Source of the DNA: Psychrilyobacter atlanticus DSM 19335
Lineage (GTDB): Bacteria; Fusobacteriota; Fusobacteriia; Fusobacteriales; Fusobacteriaceae
Direction of reading: 5' to 3'
Assembly: GCF_000426625.1 (NCBI RefSeq)
Contig: NZ_KE384548.1
Span: 186,001 to 250,000 of the forward strand
Length of the DNA stretch: 64,000 nucleotides
Below, piece after piece: positions 16,056 to 62,498 of this stretch. A model generated the notes under the pieces. It was not told the DNA's origin, did not search any database, and saw only the letters and a list, made by a program, of their open reading frames with translations. The number at the start of each line of letters is the position of its first letter. Position 1 is the stretch's first letter. Made by a program: the position numbers and the translations under genes.

Positions 16056-16337
16056 ATGGATATTGCAAAGATATTTGACTGTAATGCTGAAAGCTGTGTA
16101 TATAATAAAAATAAACAATGCCATACTCCTGCTATAAATATAGGAGATGATATACCATGTTGCGATACATTTATGGCCGGCTCTAAGAAAGCCGGATTTA
16201 ATGATGTTTCCGGTGGGGTAGGTTCGTGTAAGGTAGATTCATGTTCTTTTAATAATTCTTTGGAATGTAGTGCATCTGGTATTCATATGTCAGTTGTAGG
16301 AAATGAGGTAGACTGCCAAACTTATCGAAAAAAATAA
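16056..16337 (+). CDS. DUF1540 cysteine-rich protein
   Basis: A 93-residue protein with two copies of the DUF1540 cysteine motif, CNAESCVYNKNKQC...CCDTF (about residues 9-40) and CKVDSCSFNNSLEC...DCQTY (about residues 58-90). The paired Cys spacing suggests metal binding. The family is common in anaerobic Firmicutes and Fusobacteria and has no established role. SD GGAGG precedes ATG; a terminator follows. Confidence 0.85.
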   Translation: MDIAKIFDCNAESCVYNKNKQCHTPAINIGDDIPCCDTFMAGSKKAGFNDVSGGVGSCKVDSCSFNNSLECSASGIHMSVVGNEVDCQTYRKK

Positions 16338-30215: not shown

Positions 30216-30255
30216 TATCTAAGATAAAAAAAAGTCAAAAAACTGTACATTTTTT

Positions 30256-30378
30256 TTGACTTTTTGTATTTTTTATAGTAATAAAGGTAATAGTATTAAT
30301 ATTTCTTCAAACCAAATATTAATATCACATCTTTAGTTAGAAGTTCTCGTTGACTTTACGGGGACTTCTACTTTTTTT
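30256..30378 (+). ncRNA. Small RNA unit D2 (remnant, conserved-loop family)
   Basis: TTGACT (30,256-30,261), 17 bases, TAATAA (30,279-30,284), about 80 nt of RNA and the hairpin TAGAAGTTC...GGACTTCTA (30,338-30,370) with the loop TTGACTTTA, then TTTTTTTT. Stem sequence differs from the three copies at 43,903-44,384 but pairing and loop are kept. Confidence 0.55.
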
Positions 30379-30443
30379 TAGAAAACTTATTCTTATCTAC
30401 TAAAATTACTCCCGAACTCTTCCCTCTGAAATTAGGGAGGGTA

Positions 30444-57202: not shown

Positions 57203-57400
57203 ATGAAACAATGTGCTTATTATATCGATTGTGCCACGGAAGAAGTTCATAAATCAGGATGTCCCAATATGCCTACCGCTAATAAGATTAACTTAGGAAA
57301 GCATACAACTGCTCCTAAAGCAGTAAAGGCTGCATTATCTAAAGGCTTCACAAATGCTAATGGTTGTCCTCTCTGTTGCTCTCTCGCTAATAAAAAGTAA
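57203..57400 (+). CDS. Small cysteine-rich protein, phage moron
   Basis: A 65-residue protein with a likely zinc site: His and Cys in VHKSGCPNM and two Cys in NGCPLCCSL. The H-C...GF...C-C pattern resembles the Ada-like metal-binding domain found in nucleases and ComEC proteins. It is the only coding gene on the + strand inside the packaging module, has CAGGAGG before ATG and its own terminator, and probably its own promoter. These are marks of a moron expressed in the lysogen. Confidence 0.72.
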   Translation: MKQCAYYIDCATEEVHKSGCPNMPTANKINLGKHTTAPKAVKAALSKGFTNANGCPLCCSLANKK

Positions 57401-58417: not shown

Positions 58418-59440
58418 TTAGTGAGGAAAAATTTTTCCCACTAAATAACTTAATTTTTCTTTGTTATTTAAGTGAGAGTATTTACTATTTATTCTCTTTA
58501 TTTCCCTTCCACGGTTCTTTTTATTGTGAATATTTACTATGTCTATAAGATTAGAATAATCAAATATCCAGGAGTTATCTTCCAGGTATTTATATACACT
58601 TCTCTTTGGGGATCGGCCCTTAGATCTGGCTAATTTATTTTGTTTTTTTAGTTCTAAGTAATTTAATTCTAAGTTTGGTACTAATTCTTTTTCTAAATAT
58701 CTATATGCTTCTTTAAATAATTTTTCCCGGCATAACTCCATAAAAATCTTATCTAAGAGATCTTGATCCCCTAATAGTGCTTCTAATGTATTATCGATAT
58801 TAAATCTTTCAGTGGCATAGTATTTATATGTTGAGCTGGATAGCCACCACTCCAGTCTGGTTAATTCAAAATTTAAAAGAGTTTTATCGTCTACTTCTCT
58901 TTTCTTATCGTAAATTCTAACTTTATGACTTTTCCATCCTCCATCTAGGGTAGAATCTACAAATAATTTTTTATATGATTCATTTAGATTGATATTGCCT
59001 ATTTTTCTCAATTTAGGCAGTTTAAGGAATAAAAGGATAAAGACTTCTTTAAATTCTTCAAAGATCAGATCCAGGTTTATATTTATCTCTATTTCACTGA
59101 TCTTAGCTTCAGAAAGATCTATAGATATGTCTTTGCTATTTAATAAACTTATTAATCTATTAATAGATTCTTTCAGTTCAAAATTCCTTGTATTGTATAT
59201 ATTGTGACCATGTAAAATTTTATTAGGATTAAACCTAAGGTATGTAGTTTCTCTTACTTCTCCACTGTCGTAGAGTTTAATAGTTTTTTCTATACTGAAG
59301 AGTTCTTCTTTTATCTCAAACTTCTCTTCTATCCATCCCTGACCTTCAGTAAAAAGTGATTTTTTATCTGTTTCTATTTTTATTCCAGAGAGAACTAGTT
59401 TATCGATCCCTATCCTTTCTAACTTATCTCTATTTAACAT
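58418..59440 (-). CDS. Replication initiator-like protein
   Basis: A 340-residue protein. RIGIDKLVLSGIKI at the N terminus, SHKVRIYDKKREVDDKTLLN near residue 170 and FELTRLEWWLSS near residue 190 resemble rolling-circle replication initiators of filamentous phages and small plasmids (phage CRI/G2P-type). The catalytic tyrosine cannot be fixed by eye. The basic C terminus (KKNRGREIKR) would suit DNA binding. AGGAGGTG precedes ATG by ten bases. Upstream small RNA units on the opposite strand resemble copy-control RNAs. Family call is tentative. Confidence 0.5.
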   Translation of the reverse strand: MLNRDKLERIGIDKLVLSGIKIETDKKSLFTEGQGWIEEKFEIKEELFSIEKTIKLYDSGEVRETTYLRFNPNKILHGHNIYNTRNFELKESINRLISLLNSKDISIDLSEAKISEIEININLDLIFEEFKEVFILLFLKLPKLRKIGNINLNESYKKLFVDSTLDGGWKSHKVRIYDKKREVDDKTLLNFELTRLEWWLSSSTYKYYATERFNIDNTLEALLGDQDLLDKIFMELCREKLFKEAYRYLEKELVPNLELNYLELKKQNKLARSKGRSPKRSVYKYLEDNSWIFDYSNLIDIVNIHNKKNRGREIKRINSKYSHLNNKEKLSYLVGKIFPH

Positions 59441-59484
59441 TTGACAAATTCACCTCCTCTTATTAAATTTTATTAATTTTTAAC

Positions 59485-59624
59485 TTGACTAAGCCGGTAA
59501 GTAACTGTAGAATGTCTGTGTAATGATGTTATTATATTTGAATAAATATTATTCTCTCTCCCAAGAGATTCATTACAAAGGTTTTATGATTGGCTCTTAA
59601 ATTAACTTTTAAGAGCCTTTTTTA
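59485..59624 (+). ncRNA. Small RNA unit U7, opposite the rep leader
   Basis: TTGACT (59,485-59,490), 17 bases, TAGAAT (59,508-59,513), about 105 nt with GTAATGA/TTCATTAC pairing, then GGCTCTTAA/TTAAGAGCC and TTTTTT. It starts 45 bases upstream of the rep ATG on the opposite strand and would be antisense to the rep leader. Confidence 0.55.
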
Positions 59625-59637
59625 TATATTCATAGAG

Positions 59638-59684
59638 ATATTACATTGATGATTTGTTTTAGGAGGTTCACCTAATGTAATATC
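59638..59684. other. Inverted repeat
   Basis: ATATTACATT is mirrored by AATGTAATAT with AGG/CCT inside. It lies between units U7 and U8 and may be a terminator for neither; it could be a binding site or replication-related hairpin. Confidence 0.4.
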
Positions 59685-59756
59685 TTTAAAAATATATAGA
59701 AGATGTTATTTTATTTTTTTGTAGCCCTTTGTTTTCAAGGTTTTTTTTTCACTTAG

Positions 59757-59938
59757 TTGACTTTAGCGTTTTTTTAAGGTAAAATTAATTTATAATGAGC
59801 ATACCAATTTGTATACATTCCTCATCCCAGTTGGAATGTATGCTGCTCATAAGGGTAAATTCATTTCGGACAGTGAATTTACTTACTTTTCCTCTGAGCC
59901 TCTAGTTATCTAAATAATTAGAGGCTCTATTTTTATTT
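59757..59938 (+). ncRNA. Small RNA unit U8 with three hairpins
   Basis: TTGACT (59,757-59,762), 17 bases, TAAAAT (59,780-59,785). The RNA of about 145 nt folds into ATGAGC/GCTCAT enclosing ATACATTCC/GGAATGTAT, then GTAAATTC/GAATTTAC, then the terminator GAGCCTCTA/TAGAGGCTC and TATTTTT. Nearly all of it is paired. No known RNA family is recognised. Confidence 0.6.
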
Positions 59939-59973
59939 AGTTAATTTAGTTAATTTTATTTATTTAGATAAAC

Positions 59974-60170
59974 TTGTTTTAAAAGATACTTTGCTATATA
60001 CTCTATCCATGGTGGGAAAGAGATTTTGAGAAGTTACTACTAGCAAAGGATTTAAGCCCTAAAAAATACAGCGATTTTATATACAACCCACCAGAATAAA
60101 ATTAACACCCCAAAAGTTAATTTTATTTAAATTCCCTAAAAGAACCACTTTTTTAAGTGGTTCTTTTTAT
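59974..60170 (+). ncRNA. Transcription unit U9
   Basis: TTGTTT (59,974-59,979), 17 bases, TATACT (59,997-60,002), then about 160 nt with AAAATTAAC/GTTAATTTT and the terminator AAGAACCACTT/AAGTGGTTCTT plus TTTT. A frame within it (YPWWERDFEKLLLAKDLSPK and on to YNPPE-stop, ending near 60,100) looks coding but lacks a start codon, so it may be a gene remnant. Confidence 0.5.
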
Positions 60171-60234
60171 TTGATTTAAAATAAAAGAGTTTGCTTTTTT
60201 GTTTATTTAATTTATTTTGTTTATTTAGTTAAAC

Positions 60235-60377
60235 TTGTTTCATAGAAAAAAATTATATATAATAATTCTAAGATGGATTTGACAAAGAATTATTTTAAAA
60301 ACCTTTTAATTGTTGTTAAAGTCTATGAAACATTTTAGAATCCATCTAGAAAGATTTTCAGCATCTTTCGATTTTTT
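60235..60377 (+). ncRNA. Transcription unit U10
   Basis: TTGTTT (60,235-60,240), 17 bases, TATAAT (60,258-60,263). The transcript can form a 13-bp stem (TTCTA-GATGGATT with AATCCATCTAGAA) and ends at GAAAGAT/ATCTTTC plus GATTTTTT. It contains a 21-codon frame (MDLTKNYFKNLLIVVKVYET) and overlaps the - strand peptide gene at 60,306. Confidence 0.5.
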
Positions 60378-60380
60378 CAT
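60306..60380 (-). CDS. Small peptide (24 residues) with hairpin-masked ribosome site
   Basis: Encodes MKKSKDAENLSRWILKCFID and four more residues. AAAGGG precedes ATG but lies in the 3' arm of a hairpin (60,384-60,392 with 60,399-60,407), so translation may be repressed until the hairpin opens. The + strand unit U10 is antisense to the whole gene. The layout suggests a type I toxin-antitoxin-like pair, without sequence proof. A longer frame to 60,512 has no ribosome site. Confidence 0.35.
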   Translation of the reverse strand: MKKSKDAENLSRWILKCFIDFNNN

Positions 60381-60632
60381 ATGGGATCCCTTTTCCTGAA
60401 GGGGTCCTCTTCCATTTAAAAGATCTTTATTTTTTTTAATATCTAAAGTGTTACGTTTGACTTTGAAAAAAAAGTTCGATATACTTAATTTAGGTGGATT
60501 TAAATTAAACATTATTTAAAATACATAATAAACTGCTTGTTAATACCAAAAATTGCTTTTTTGAAATTTTAAATCCGCCTAAAAAAGACTTTTTTATTGG
60601 ATTATTATTATATAGATTATTCGCATGAGACC

Positions 60633-60662
60633 TCTATTTTATGGAGATCTCATTCTTTTTTT
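60633..60662 (+). terminator. Terminator-like hairpin
   Basis: TGAGACCTC pairs with GAGATCTCA (one mismatch), followed by TTCTTTTTTT. An upstream promoter for it is not clear. Confidence 0.6.
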
Positions 60663-60691
60663 CACAACATTAATTTTTTTTAATTAGTATA

Positions 60692-60720
60692 TTGACTTTT
60701 ATTTAGATTAGATATACACT
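60692..60720 (+). promoter_or_regulatory. Promoter of a further + strand unit
   Basis: TTGACT (60,692-60,697), 17 bases, TACACT (60,715-60,720), the same format as U1-U10. The transcript would run antisense into the gene at 60,816; no clear terminator was found before the strong hairpin at 60,836-60,866. Confidence 0.4.
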
Positions 60721-60815
60721 TGTTTCAAGTGGGTTGAATACAGTCAAAAGTATTTTTATTTTTAATAATTAAACTATTGATTATCCACTTCGCAGAGACT
60801 TTTATTTATACGTCT

Positions 60816-61118
60816 TTAGTTGTATTCCTTCATATGGGGGCTCCTTTCAATCTTGGAAGGAGCCCCTTCCCTATTCAATTTCTTTGCTTTTTTTACACAA
60901 TAATTTTCAATTTCTAATGTTAAATATTTCTCTTTTGATGGGATTTTATCTCTTATGAATTTATGCATGTTGTCCCAGTCAAAGTTTATTTTTTTATACA
61001 GTTGGTCTCTTTCAATCTTTCCCATGGATTTCCAGCCTTTTTTAGCAAGATCTTTTCTTTTATCTTCCAGGGCTTTCATCTGGGTTTGTCTTAATTCTCT
61101 TTGCTTTTTCCAGTTCAT
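60816..61118 (-). CDS. Hypothetical basic protein
   Basis: A 100-residue lysine-rich, helical protein (MNWKKQRELRQTQMKALEDK at the N terminus). AGGGGG lies before ATG 61,118; an upstream start at 61,157 lacks one. The last codons contain a very stable hairpin (GGGGCTCCTT/AAGGAGCCCC, 60,836-60,866) resembling the one before the 24-residue peptide at 60,306. No family recognised; basic charge suggests nucleic-acid binding. Confidence 0.5.
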   Translation of the reverse strand: MNWKKQRELRQTQMKALEDKRKDLAKKGWKSMGKIERDQLYKKINFDWDNMHKFIRDKIPSKEKYLTLEIENYCVKKAKKLNREGAPSKIERSPHMKEYN

Positions 61119-61217
61119 ATTTCCCCCTAATGGGTGATTGAGTTCCCACCTTCTCAATGTTGAATAGTTTCCCGTTAAATTAACTATTTCCCTTATTAAA
61201 AAACAAAAAGGAGCGTA

Positions 61218-61245
61218 AAAACAGGCTAGTTATAGCCTATCTTTA
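61218..61245 (-). terminator. Terminator of small - strand genes
   Basis: On the - strand AGGCT-ataact-AGCCT is followed by GTTTTT, within a wider GTAAA/TTTAC pairing. Confidence 0.6.
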
Positions 61246-61272
61246 CACCCCATAATTTTTTGGTAGTATAAG

Positions 61273-61772: not shown

Positions 61773-62114
61773 ATGAAGAAAAAGATTTTATTATTTACAG
61801 GGGTAGTTTTAATGGGGATATTTATGTATAGTATGCCTTACACTAGCAGCTTAAATGGAACTAGCATAAGCCAAACAGGGAATTCTTCAGAATTGAAGTT
61901 ACAATATAGAAAAGGACTTTATTATGAACTAGGAAAAGGTACACCGTTTACAGGTAAAATGAAAGTTAATTACGAGAAGGAGTATGTAAATAGCGAAGGT
62001 AATTATAAGACCAAAGAAGCAATTTTTGAGAATGAATATGTGAATGGAGTTATAAAAAATACAAACTATTATACTCAAAATGGAACTTTTGAATATAATG
62101 TTAAAAAAATATAG
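61773..62114 (+). CDS. Exported YwqK-like protein, copy 1
   Basis: A 113-residue protein with a signal peptide (MKKKILLFTGVVLMGIFMYS). The mature part resembles a single YwqK/MORN-type unit (YYELGKGTPFTGKMKVNYEK ... NEYVNGVIKNTNYY), a motif seen in secreted fusobacterial proteins and some toxin-antidote pairs. AGGAGG precedes ATG; CATATAAT lies about 50 bases upstream as a likely -10. First of a tandem pair. Confidence 0.7.
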   Translation: MKKKILLFTGVVLMGIFMYSMPYTSSLNGTSISQTGNSSELKLQYRKGLYYELGKGTPFTGKMKVNYEKEYVNSEGNYKTKEAIFENEYVNGVIKNTNYYTQNGTFEYNVKKI

Positions 62115-62156
62115 AATATAATCATTTTACAAAAAAGAATACAGAGGAGGAGTTAT

Positions 62157-62498
62157 ATGAAGAAGAAGATTGCACTACTTACAGGGGTAGTTTTAATAGG
62201 GATATTTATGTATAGTATGCCTTACACTAGCAGTTTAAATGGGACGAGCATAAGCCAAACAGGGAATACGTCACAATTGAGGTTACAATATAAAAAAGGA
62301 CTTTATTATGAACTAGGAAAGGAGACACCATTTACAGGTGAAATGAGAGTAAATTATGAAAAGGAATATATAAATAGTGAAGGTAATTCTAAGACCAGAG
62401 AAGCATTTTTCAAGAATGAATATGTGAATGGACTTTTAAAAGAAACAAACTACTATAGTCAAAATGGAACTTTTGAATATAGTGTTAAAAAAATATAG
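62157..62498 (+). CDS. Exported YwqK-like protein, copy 2
   Basis: A 113-residue paralogue of the preceding gene, about 80 percent identical, with the same signal peptide and repeat unit. The starts are 384 bases apart and the ribosome-site region (ATAATCATTTTACA, CAGAGGAGGA) is duplicated too, so the unit arose by tandem duplication. A strong terminator follows. Confidence 0.7.
   Translation: MKKKIALLTGVVLIGIFMYSMPYTSSLNGTSISQTGNTSQLRLQYKKGLYYELGKETPFTGEMRVNYEKEYINSEGNSKTREAFFKNEYVNGLLKETNYYSQNGTFEYSVKKI

What the first reader, a model, noticed from the sequence alone, without database searches (positions are those of the whole stretch)
59485..60720. Array of opposite-strand RNA units upstream of a Rep-like gene
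Seen: at least four complete units (promoter, structured RNA, terminator) plus another promoter fill the 1.3 kb upstream of the Rep-like gene, all on the strand opposite to it. The nearest would overlap the rep leader. Established: plasmid rep genes are often controlled by countertranscribed RNAs. Inference: copy or induction control of this phage may rest on several antisense RNAs, compatible with the missing CI-type repressor and integrase.
Basis: partly seen in the sequence, partly recalled or inferred. Interest (0 to 1): 0.7.

Follow-up and report, generated by a model that had tools for sequence, protein, structure and literature searches.

The report
Prophage array of small-RNA genes
A prophage in a Fusobacteria-type genome carries six back-to-back small-RNA genes around its replication gene, and relatives of two of them survive in bacterial chromosomes where the phage is gone, which suggests that they regulate other genes rather than only switching off the neighbouring replication gene.

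Summary
The array is real and larger than reported: six promoter-RNA-terminator units (59485-60872) opposite the Rep-like gene; four terminator-like sites, all on +, against 0.3 expected. U7 and U8 are RNA families with compensatory base changes; U8b and U9 are recognised by a model of a third family, U12, not trained on them. Strong matches come from one genus only. Units are exchangeable: a sister prophage has none; another species has U8b-U9 in one prophage and U8-U10-U11 in another. The premise for rep control fails: a CI-type repressor and an integrase lie beyond the window edge. U7 is antisense to the rep leader, but 6 of 11 loci with a gene at the rep position lack it, and 10 of 15 copies are not beside an intact one. 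In two species the same host site keeps U7 and U8 (97.6%, 94.3% identical) while spacer and hairpin relic drop to 70%. Best reading: trans-acting small RNAs, several with C-rich loops like LhrC and FoxI/FoxJ, carried as cassettes and partly domesticated. Targets unknown; no expression data.

The parts
58418..59440 (-). Rep-like gene (340 aa)
   Evidence: Phage_CRI/G2P 20.9 bits, just under the cut-off of 21.7; phrog_702 'replication protein' 5.8e-07; TIGR01629 rep_II_X 17 bits against cut-off 29
59485..59513 (+). U7 promoter, TTGACT-17-TAGAAT
   Evidence: upstream sequences of the other copies
59519..59626 (+). U7 RNA: closing stem P1, two inner hairpins, the second with a CUCCCA apical loop, terminator 59592-59617
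   Evidence: alignment A4 of 9 copies, 8 pairs changed on both sides, covariation score reached by 0/500 shuffles; model R1
59623..59700 (.). Conserved hairpin between U7 and U8, loop TGATTTGTTTTAGGAGGTYCACC; probable Rep target/origin (inferred)
   Evidence: 16 loci; 12-13 of 13 stem pairs in all 11 loci with a gene at the rep position, 11 where rep is broken, 7-11 in 4 loci without rep
59757..59785 (+). U8 promoter, TTGACT-17-TAAAAT
59793..59932 (+). U8 RNA: closing stem with inner hairpin (loop with UCCCAG), hairpin P2, terminator 59896-59927
   Evidence: alignment A5 of 5 copies, 13 pairs changed on both sides, 0/500 shuffles; model R2
59974..60170 (+). U8b unit: promoter TTGTTT-17-TATACT, RNA 60008-60170, P2 loop CACCCCAAAA, terminator 60138-60167
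   Evidence: 90% identical U8b-U9 block in L076; model R3, not trained on it, E 2.1e-4
60235..60415 (+). U9 unit: promoter TTGTTT-17-TATAAT, RNA 60269-60415, terminator 60383-60408
   Evidence: homolog in L076; model R3, not trained on it, E 4e-7
60457..60655 (+). U10 unit: promoter TTGACT-17-TATACT, 13-bp closing stem from 60492, terminator 60625-60653
   Evidence: homolog in L077, 83% identity over U10-U11; model R3 only marginal, E 0.063
60692..60872 (+). U11 unit: promoter TTGACT-17-TACACT, structured RNA, terminator 60837-60866
   Evidence: homolog in L077; not recognised by R3
60816..61118 (-). Small ORF upstream of rep, also present at the same place in L009, L014, L015, L018 and L076; its 3' end overlaps U11
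   Evidence: no Pfam, PHROG or NCBIfam match

Best explanation
59485-60872 is an array of six small-RNA genes, each with its own promoter and intrinsic terminator, carried by a temperate tailed prophage. They belong to several RNA families that move as cassettes into the variable zone around a conserved hairpin (probably the Rep target) beside the rep gene. The RNAs most likely act in trans on mRNAs. U7, U8, U8b and U12 would pair through C-rich loops (CUCUCCCA, UCCCAG, ACCCCAAA, CUCUCUCC) with G-rich ribosome-binding sites, without Hfq, as LhrC and FoxI/FoxJ do. Some pairs (U7+U8) have been kept by the host after loss of the phage. U7 may additionally act in cis as an antisense RNA on the rep leader. 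Shown: structure, covariation, modular exchange, independence from rep, selective retention. Inferred: transcription, trans action, C-rich seed pairing. Unknown: targets.
For: Terminators 4 against 0.3 expected. Covariation U7: 8 pairs changed on both sides, score 0.272 against 0.189 shuffled, 0/500; U8: 13 pairs, 0.357 against 0.218, 0/500. R3 finds U9 and U8b although trained only on U12. Modularity: window U7-hairpin-U8-U8b-U9-U10-U11; L076 U6-U7-hairpin-U8b-U9-U12; L077 another unit-hairpin-U8-U10-U11; L015 only the hairpin. U7: 14 places in 61 family genomes, 12 with E<=1.9e-10 and 2 weak ones accepted on synteny, all in one genus, plus one viral contig. The closing stem of U7 has 7-8 of 8 pairs in all 15 copies, with or without rep, while the hairpin decays without rep. 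Orthologous host site in G000 and G058: U7 RNA 82/84, U8 RNA 133/141, hydrolase coding 186/198, against spacer 87/125 and hairpin relic 45/64 with 26 gap columns. No Hfq found in G000. C-rich seeds are established for LhrC (PMC4132741, passages) and for Fusobacterium FoxI/FoxJ (PMC11005410, passages).
Against: No expression data. Unpaired CCC in the six window units is not above shuffles (6 observed, mean 5.7); U9, U10 and U11 have no C-rich apical loop. One domesticated U7 (L133) has CUCCU instead of CUCCC, and L094 U8 lost its CCC. No target stands out: best ribosome-site pairing is with a DUF1540 gene at 16056 (-18.2 kcal/mol), whose GGGAGAGAG is only partly kept in the 4 relatives looked at. 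U7 lies at a fixed place between rep and hairpin wherever both are present, which a purely trans-acting RNA does not need. U10 and U11 rest on two copies each.
Confidence: 0.58

Rival explanations
1. U7 (and perhaps the others) are countertranscribed RNAs that limit rep expression, as in rolling-circle plasmids; the rest of the array is accessory.
For: U7 is always between rep and hairpin on the opposite strand where both occur (window, L088/L076, L082/L018, L090, L096, and L085 with a broken rep). A sister prophage suggests rep is read from upstream of the small ORF, so its mRNA would carry the complement of U7.
Against: 6 of 11 loci with a gene at the rep position have no U7 (L089, L081, L083, L094, L095, L014). 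9 of 15 U7 copies have no rep beside them and one more has a broken rep. U8-U11 are not in the rep leader of relatives. The U7 loop does not favour the rep ribosome site (rank 42 of 62).
Confidence: 0.22
2. The structured units are single-strand origins: hairpins with promoter-like sequences where host RNA polymerase primes second-strand synthesis after rolling-circle replication.
For: They flank a hairpin that tracks Rep. Units with promoter and hairpins next to a rolling-circle origin recall filamentous phages and ICEBs1 (recalled; ICEBs1 sso paper PMC4595007 seen only in the search listing).
Against: Each unit ends in a terminator; up to five units in a row are more than needed; a sister prophage has none; U7 and U8 stay conserved in a chromosome without a working hairpin.
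Confidence: 0.08
3. The array is an RNA-based immunity or interference locus: its RNAs silence related prophages or superinfecting phages, and chromosomal relics protect the host.
For: Exchange of units between related prophages; retention without the phage; the small ORF leader of these phages is rich in GGGAA hairpins and has a GGGGG ribosome site.
Against: No preference of the C-rich loops for the small ORF (ranks 10, 14, 12 and 29 of 62) or rep; no phage challenge data.
Confidence: 0.12

Closest known systems
LhrC multicopy sRNAs of Listeria monocytogenes (PMC4132741, passages read)
   Same: Several similar sRNA genes; UCCC motifs in loops and single-stranded stretch; bind the G-rich site before the start codon; the abstract passage says no chaperone is needed for stability or target interaction.
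   Different: Here phage-borne, of several families, exchanged between prophages and placed around a rep/hairpin locus; targets unknown; window U9-U11 lack the C-rich loop.
FoxI and FoxJ sRNAs of Fusobacterium nucleatum (PMC11005410, passages read)
   Same: Same wider lineage, judging from the Fusobacteriaceae MAG that carries a rep relative; cytosine-stretch seed; no Hfq.
   Different: Chromosomal, sigma-E dependent, single genes; no sequence comparison was made here.
Countertranscribed RNAs of rolling-circle plasmids such as pT181 and pLS1 (recalled)
   Same: U7 is opposite the rep leader, short, structured and terminated.
   Different: U7 is optional for rep loci and persists where rep is gone; five further units.
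csRNA family, Rfam RF02379 (Cia-dependent small RNAs)
   Same: U8b 3' half scores 40.5 bits, E 0.0017 in a 1.5-kb search.
   Different: Below the gathering score of 57; the match is mostly hairpin P2 and the terminator stem.
Phage immunity RNAs of P4 and P1 (recalled)
   Same: Phage-encoded antisense RNA acting on related phages.
   Different: Single RNAs from the phage's own leader; here a CI-type repressor is also present.

Membership tests
Multicopy CU-rich sRNAs (LhrC type) | Several paralogous sRNA genes with own promoter and terminator | tested here: met
   U8b and U9 recognised by the U12 model, E 2.1e-4 and 4e-7; U10 marginal (0.063), U11 not
Multicopy CU-rich sRNAs (LhrC type) | Conserved unpaired UCCC-type motif | tested here: inconclusive
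   CCC in the loop segment of 14 of 15 U7 copies (sequences printed; L133 has CUCCU) and in most U8 copies, present in U8b; absent in window U9-U11; total not above shuffles
Multicopy CU-rich sRNAs (LhrC type) | Pairing with target ribosome-binding sites shown by experiment | not testable with these tools
   only in silico pairing
Plasmid-type countertranscribed RNA of rep | Encoded opposite the rep leader | tested here: met
   U7 only; 6 of 6 copies that have rep beside them, one of these broken
Plasmid-type countertranscribed RNA of rep | Present wherever the replicon is, absent where rep is absent | tested here: not met
   absent from 6 of 11 loci with a gene at the rep position; present at 9 places without rep
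csRNA (RF02379) | Score at or above Rfam gathering threshold | tested here: not met
   40.5 against 57 bits
Any Rfam family | Gathering-score match to the array | tested here: not met
   whole-window scan gives 4 matches, all far from the array
Phage_CRI / gpII-type Rep | Pfam gathering score for the Rep-like protein | tested here: inconclusive
   20.9 against 21.7 bits; 4 relatives (31-87% identity) show no match at E 0.01; AlphaFold model unusable, pLDDT 42.5

The most novel reading that the evidence does not exclude
These phages carry a swappable set of regulatory RNAs around their replication locus, an RNA cassette system through which related prophages and their host compete or cooperate, and the host keeps single RNA pairs after the phage has decayed.
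Probability: 0.3. Interest if true: 0.75.

Novelty: new variant of a known kind. Interest (0 to 1): 0.52.

Why it matters
Phage small RNAs are mostly known to me as single genes. A multi-family array that is rearranged between prophages, with members fixed in the chromosome of two species, would show how phages can supply a bacterial lineage without detectable Hfq with new small RNAs. The domesticated U7-U8 pair is a small, directly testable case. For this finding it also removes the argument that the phage needs RNA control because it lacks a repressor.

Tried and rejected
Missing repressor and integrase as a reason for RNA control: rejected, both exist outside the window.

U8b as a coding gene: an open frame (WWERDFEKLLLAKDLSPKKYSDFIYNPPE) was noticed by eye, but the L076 homolog has frame-breaking indels (by eye), so rejected.

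Rfam membership: none at gathering score; weak csRNA and RNAI matches lie on the U8b hairpin and terminator.

Enrichment of unpaired CCC: not above shuffles. An after-the-fact strand contrast in the same output (6 of 11 CCC unpaired on +, 0 of 10 on -) was not used as evidence.

Target search by loop pairing against 62 hand-picked start regions of the window: no clear target; rep ranks 42, 28, 11 and 19 of 62 for the four loops and the small ORF 10, 14, 12 and 29 (the output counts from zero). The start list was mine and includes uncertain starts; the small ORF was entered at 61119, one base off its ATG at 61118.

Structure of Rep: AlphaFold model useless, so no fold search; the profile search of solved structures gave nothing credible.

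Database matches: none in phage records for the array or for Rep.

A first reading of rep upstream regions took contig-oriented loci as match-oriented; the rows with rep on the minus strand (L020, L021, L025, L026, L030, L032, L033, L038) showed the wrong side and were dropped, not redone. A first hairpin pair count in one register was replaced by the best of eight registers.

Not followed up: weak matches of model R1 outside the genus (E 4.8e-5 to 0.01) and three weak ones inside it (G000:C2:1291052, G058:C2:1670642, G054:C28:16896); the short DNA matches in other genomes.

Literature: searches. None lists a report of these RNAs; 'Psychrilyobacter' with 'prophage' gave 0 papers.

Full report
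The window lies in a 3.54-Mb genome. The prophage begins near 33.3 kb and continues past the window end: an IMG/VR record that contains this region is 47,825 bases long. Just beyond the window are a repressor with HTH and Peptidase_S24 domains (L079:8059-8859, -) and a serine recombinase (L079:16772-18172, +).

Observation. In 59441-60900 the terminator scan finds 4 sites, all on +, against 0.3 (sd 0.7) in shuffles; promoter-like sites are 13 against 7.9 (sd 3.5). By eye and by folding there are six units, U7, U8, U8b, U9, U10 and U11. All are on +; rep is on -.

Synteny. Among close relatives of Rep, prophage L015 of the same genome has small ORF, one hairpin element and rep with nothing else between; L009 and L014 have a further gene there that looks by eye like a methylase/ParB. 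The window has U7 between rep and the hairpin, and U8 to U11 between the hairpin and the small ORF. In G058, prophage L076 carries U6_76, U7, hairpin, U8b, U9 and a new unit U12, and the degraded prophage L077 carries another unit, hairpin, U8, U10 and U11. U8b-U9 and U8/U10-U11 thus behave as separate cassettes.

Hairpin. The loop sequence was found at 12 places in 5 of 61 family genomes, all one genus, in 5 viral records of which 3 were new, and in L014: 16 loci looked at. Stem pairs: 12-13 of 13 at the 11 loci with a gene at the rep position, 11 at L085 where rep is broken, and 7, 8, 11 and 11 at the four loci without rep (best of eight registers for each). The 11 are six with this Rep (two of them, L083 and L014, with an extra gene between; in L083 the contig ends inside rep) and five (L081, L090, L094, L095, L096) with another protein, which has no Pfam match in the two tested and was equated by eye in the other three. 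The hairpin therefore tracks rep and is probably its target. On the rep strand its loop resembles the nick site of filamentous phages (recalled, not tested).

RNA families. U7: nine copies aligned, 32 pairs, 88.3% of cells paired, 8 pairs changed on both sides, covariation score 0.272 against 0.189 in shuffles, 0/500. These sequences are related, so the shuffle figure is not a probability; sliding the partner strand gives at most 0.111. U8: five copies, 42 pairs, 13 changed on both sides, 0.357 against 0.218, 0/500; slid at most 0.205. Model R1 (U7) gives 12 matches at E<=1.9e-10 in 61 family genomes, all in one genus. Two weak matches (G000:C2:1475139, E 2.3e-4; G058:C2:1860325, E 0.008) are accepted because they are next to strong U8 matches at an orthologous site. 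With viral L096 that is 15 copies: 5 beside a whole gene at the rep position, 1 beside a broken rep, 9 without rep. The U7 closing stem has 7-8 of 8 pairs in all 15. R2 (U8) gives 5 matches in 8 genus genomes. R3 (U12, four copies) gives 5 strong matches in 8 genus genomes, and also window U9, L076 U9 and window U8b, none of them in its training set (E 4e-7, 8.1e-7 and 2.1e-4). U10 is marginal (0.063, at the level of unrelated matches) and U11 is not found.

Domestication. G000:C2:1472500-1478500 and G058:C2:1857500-1863500 are 89% identical over 4.4 kb. The listed genes there are host-type, including an alpha/beta hydrolase and a glyoxalase; beyond the shared stretch L133 has part of a transposase-like ORF. 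No phage gene was recognised. Between the two genes lie U7, a hairpin relic and U8. Identity: U7 promoter 32/33, U7 RNA 82/84, U8 promoter 33/36, U8 RNA 133/141; hydrolase coding 186/198; spacer 87/125; hairpin relic and spacer 45/64 with 26 gap columns. The stretch after U8 is 126/141, but it holds a repeat that is common in the genus. The RNA genes have been held like coding sequence while their surroundings drifted. This argues for a function without rep.

Mechanism. No Hfq was found in G000, with the search positive in 5 of 14 control genomes. U7 has CCC in the P3 segment in 14 of 15 copies (L133 has CUCCU), U8 in most copies, U8b in P2; U12 has a CUCUCUCC-type loop. LhrC uses three UCCC sites against a G-rich site before the start codon (PMC4132741, passages), and cytosine stretches serve as seeds in FoxI/FoxJ of Fusobacterium nucleatum, which lacks Hfq and ProQ (PMC11005410, passages). 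By analogy I infer trans action on ribosome sites. Against it: unpaired CCC in the six window units is at chance level (6 against 5.7), U9-U11 lack such loops, and no target was found. A DUF1540 gene at 16056 has a 9-base complement to the U7 and U12 loops, but only 62 start regions were tried and the match is only partly kept in 4 relatives.

Antisense control of rep. U7 sits where a countertranscribed RNA should, in every copy that has rep beside it. In L015 the scan finds no promoter-like site within about 620 nt upstream of rep, so a read-through rep mRNA is likely. But 6 of 11 loci with a gene at the rep position do without U7. Cis control is possible in addition, not as the general function.

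Verdict. I rate it a new variant of a known kind: C-rich, multicopy small RNAs, here as phage-borne cassettes with domesticated members. The families are not in Rfam at gathering score, and the literature searches listed under Tried and rejected did not show them.

Noticed in passing
window 61119-61251 (-) and relatives L009, L014, L015, L018, L076: Leader of the small ORF before rep: conserved hairpins with GGGAA/GGTGGGAAC loops, a CCC-GGGGG hairpin at the ribosome site, and a strong terminator just upstream; looks like an RNA-binding or attenuation control.
   Followed up: no
L134 about 2334-2396 and more than 100 places in genus genomes: A short interspersed palindromic repeat (GCAACGTGACGTTGC core), REP/MITE-like.
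   Followed up: no
L009, L014, L018, L043, beside the hairpin or rep: A highly conserved structured stretch of about 90 nt (AGCTGGTCTAAACGTCATAACAGGCAATATCAGCT core on the rep strand) in prophages without the U8-U11 array.
   Followed up: no
window 57203-57400; L004, L084, L087, L098, L122: Small cysteine-rich ORFs (window copy hits phrog_4298) stand next to rep-less U7 loci.
   Followed up: partly
window about 30243-30380; L077; L085: A further RNA-like unit (GTATTAATA hairpin, then TCTCGTTGACTTTACGAGA terminator) shared by three places, one outside the prophage.
   Followed up: no
window 59948-59981 and 60197-60242; L005, L007: U8b and U9 promoters share a TTTAGTTAA-repeat element that also precedes two chromosomal genes of the genome; possible common regulator.
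   Followed up: no
window 61773-62498: Tandem duplicate of a 113-aa secreted-type protein; one copy at the matching place in L076, there after an IS21-like insertion.
   Followed up: no
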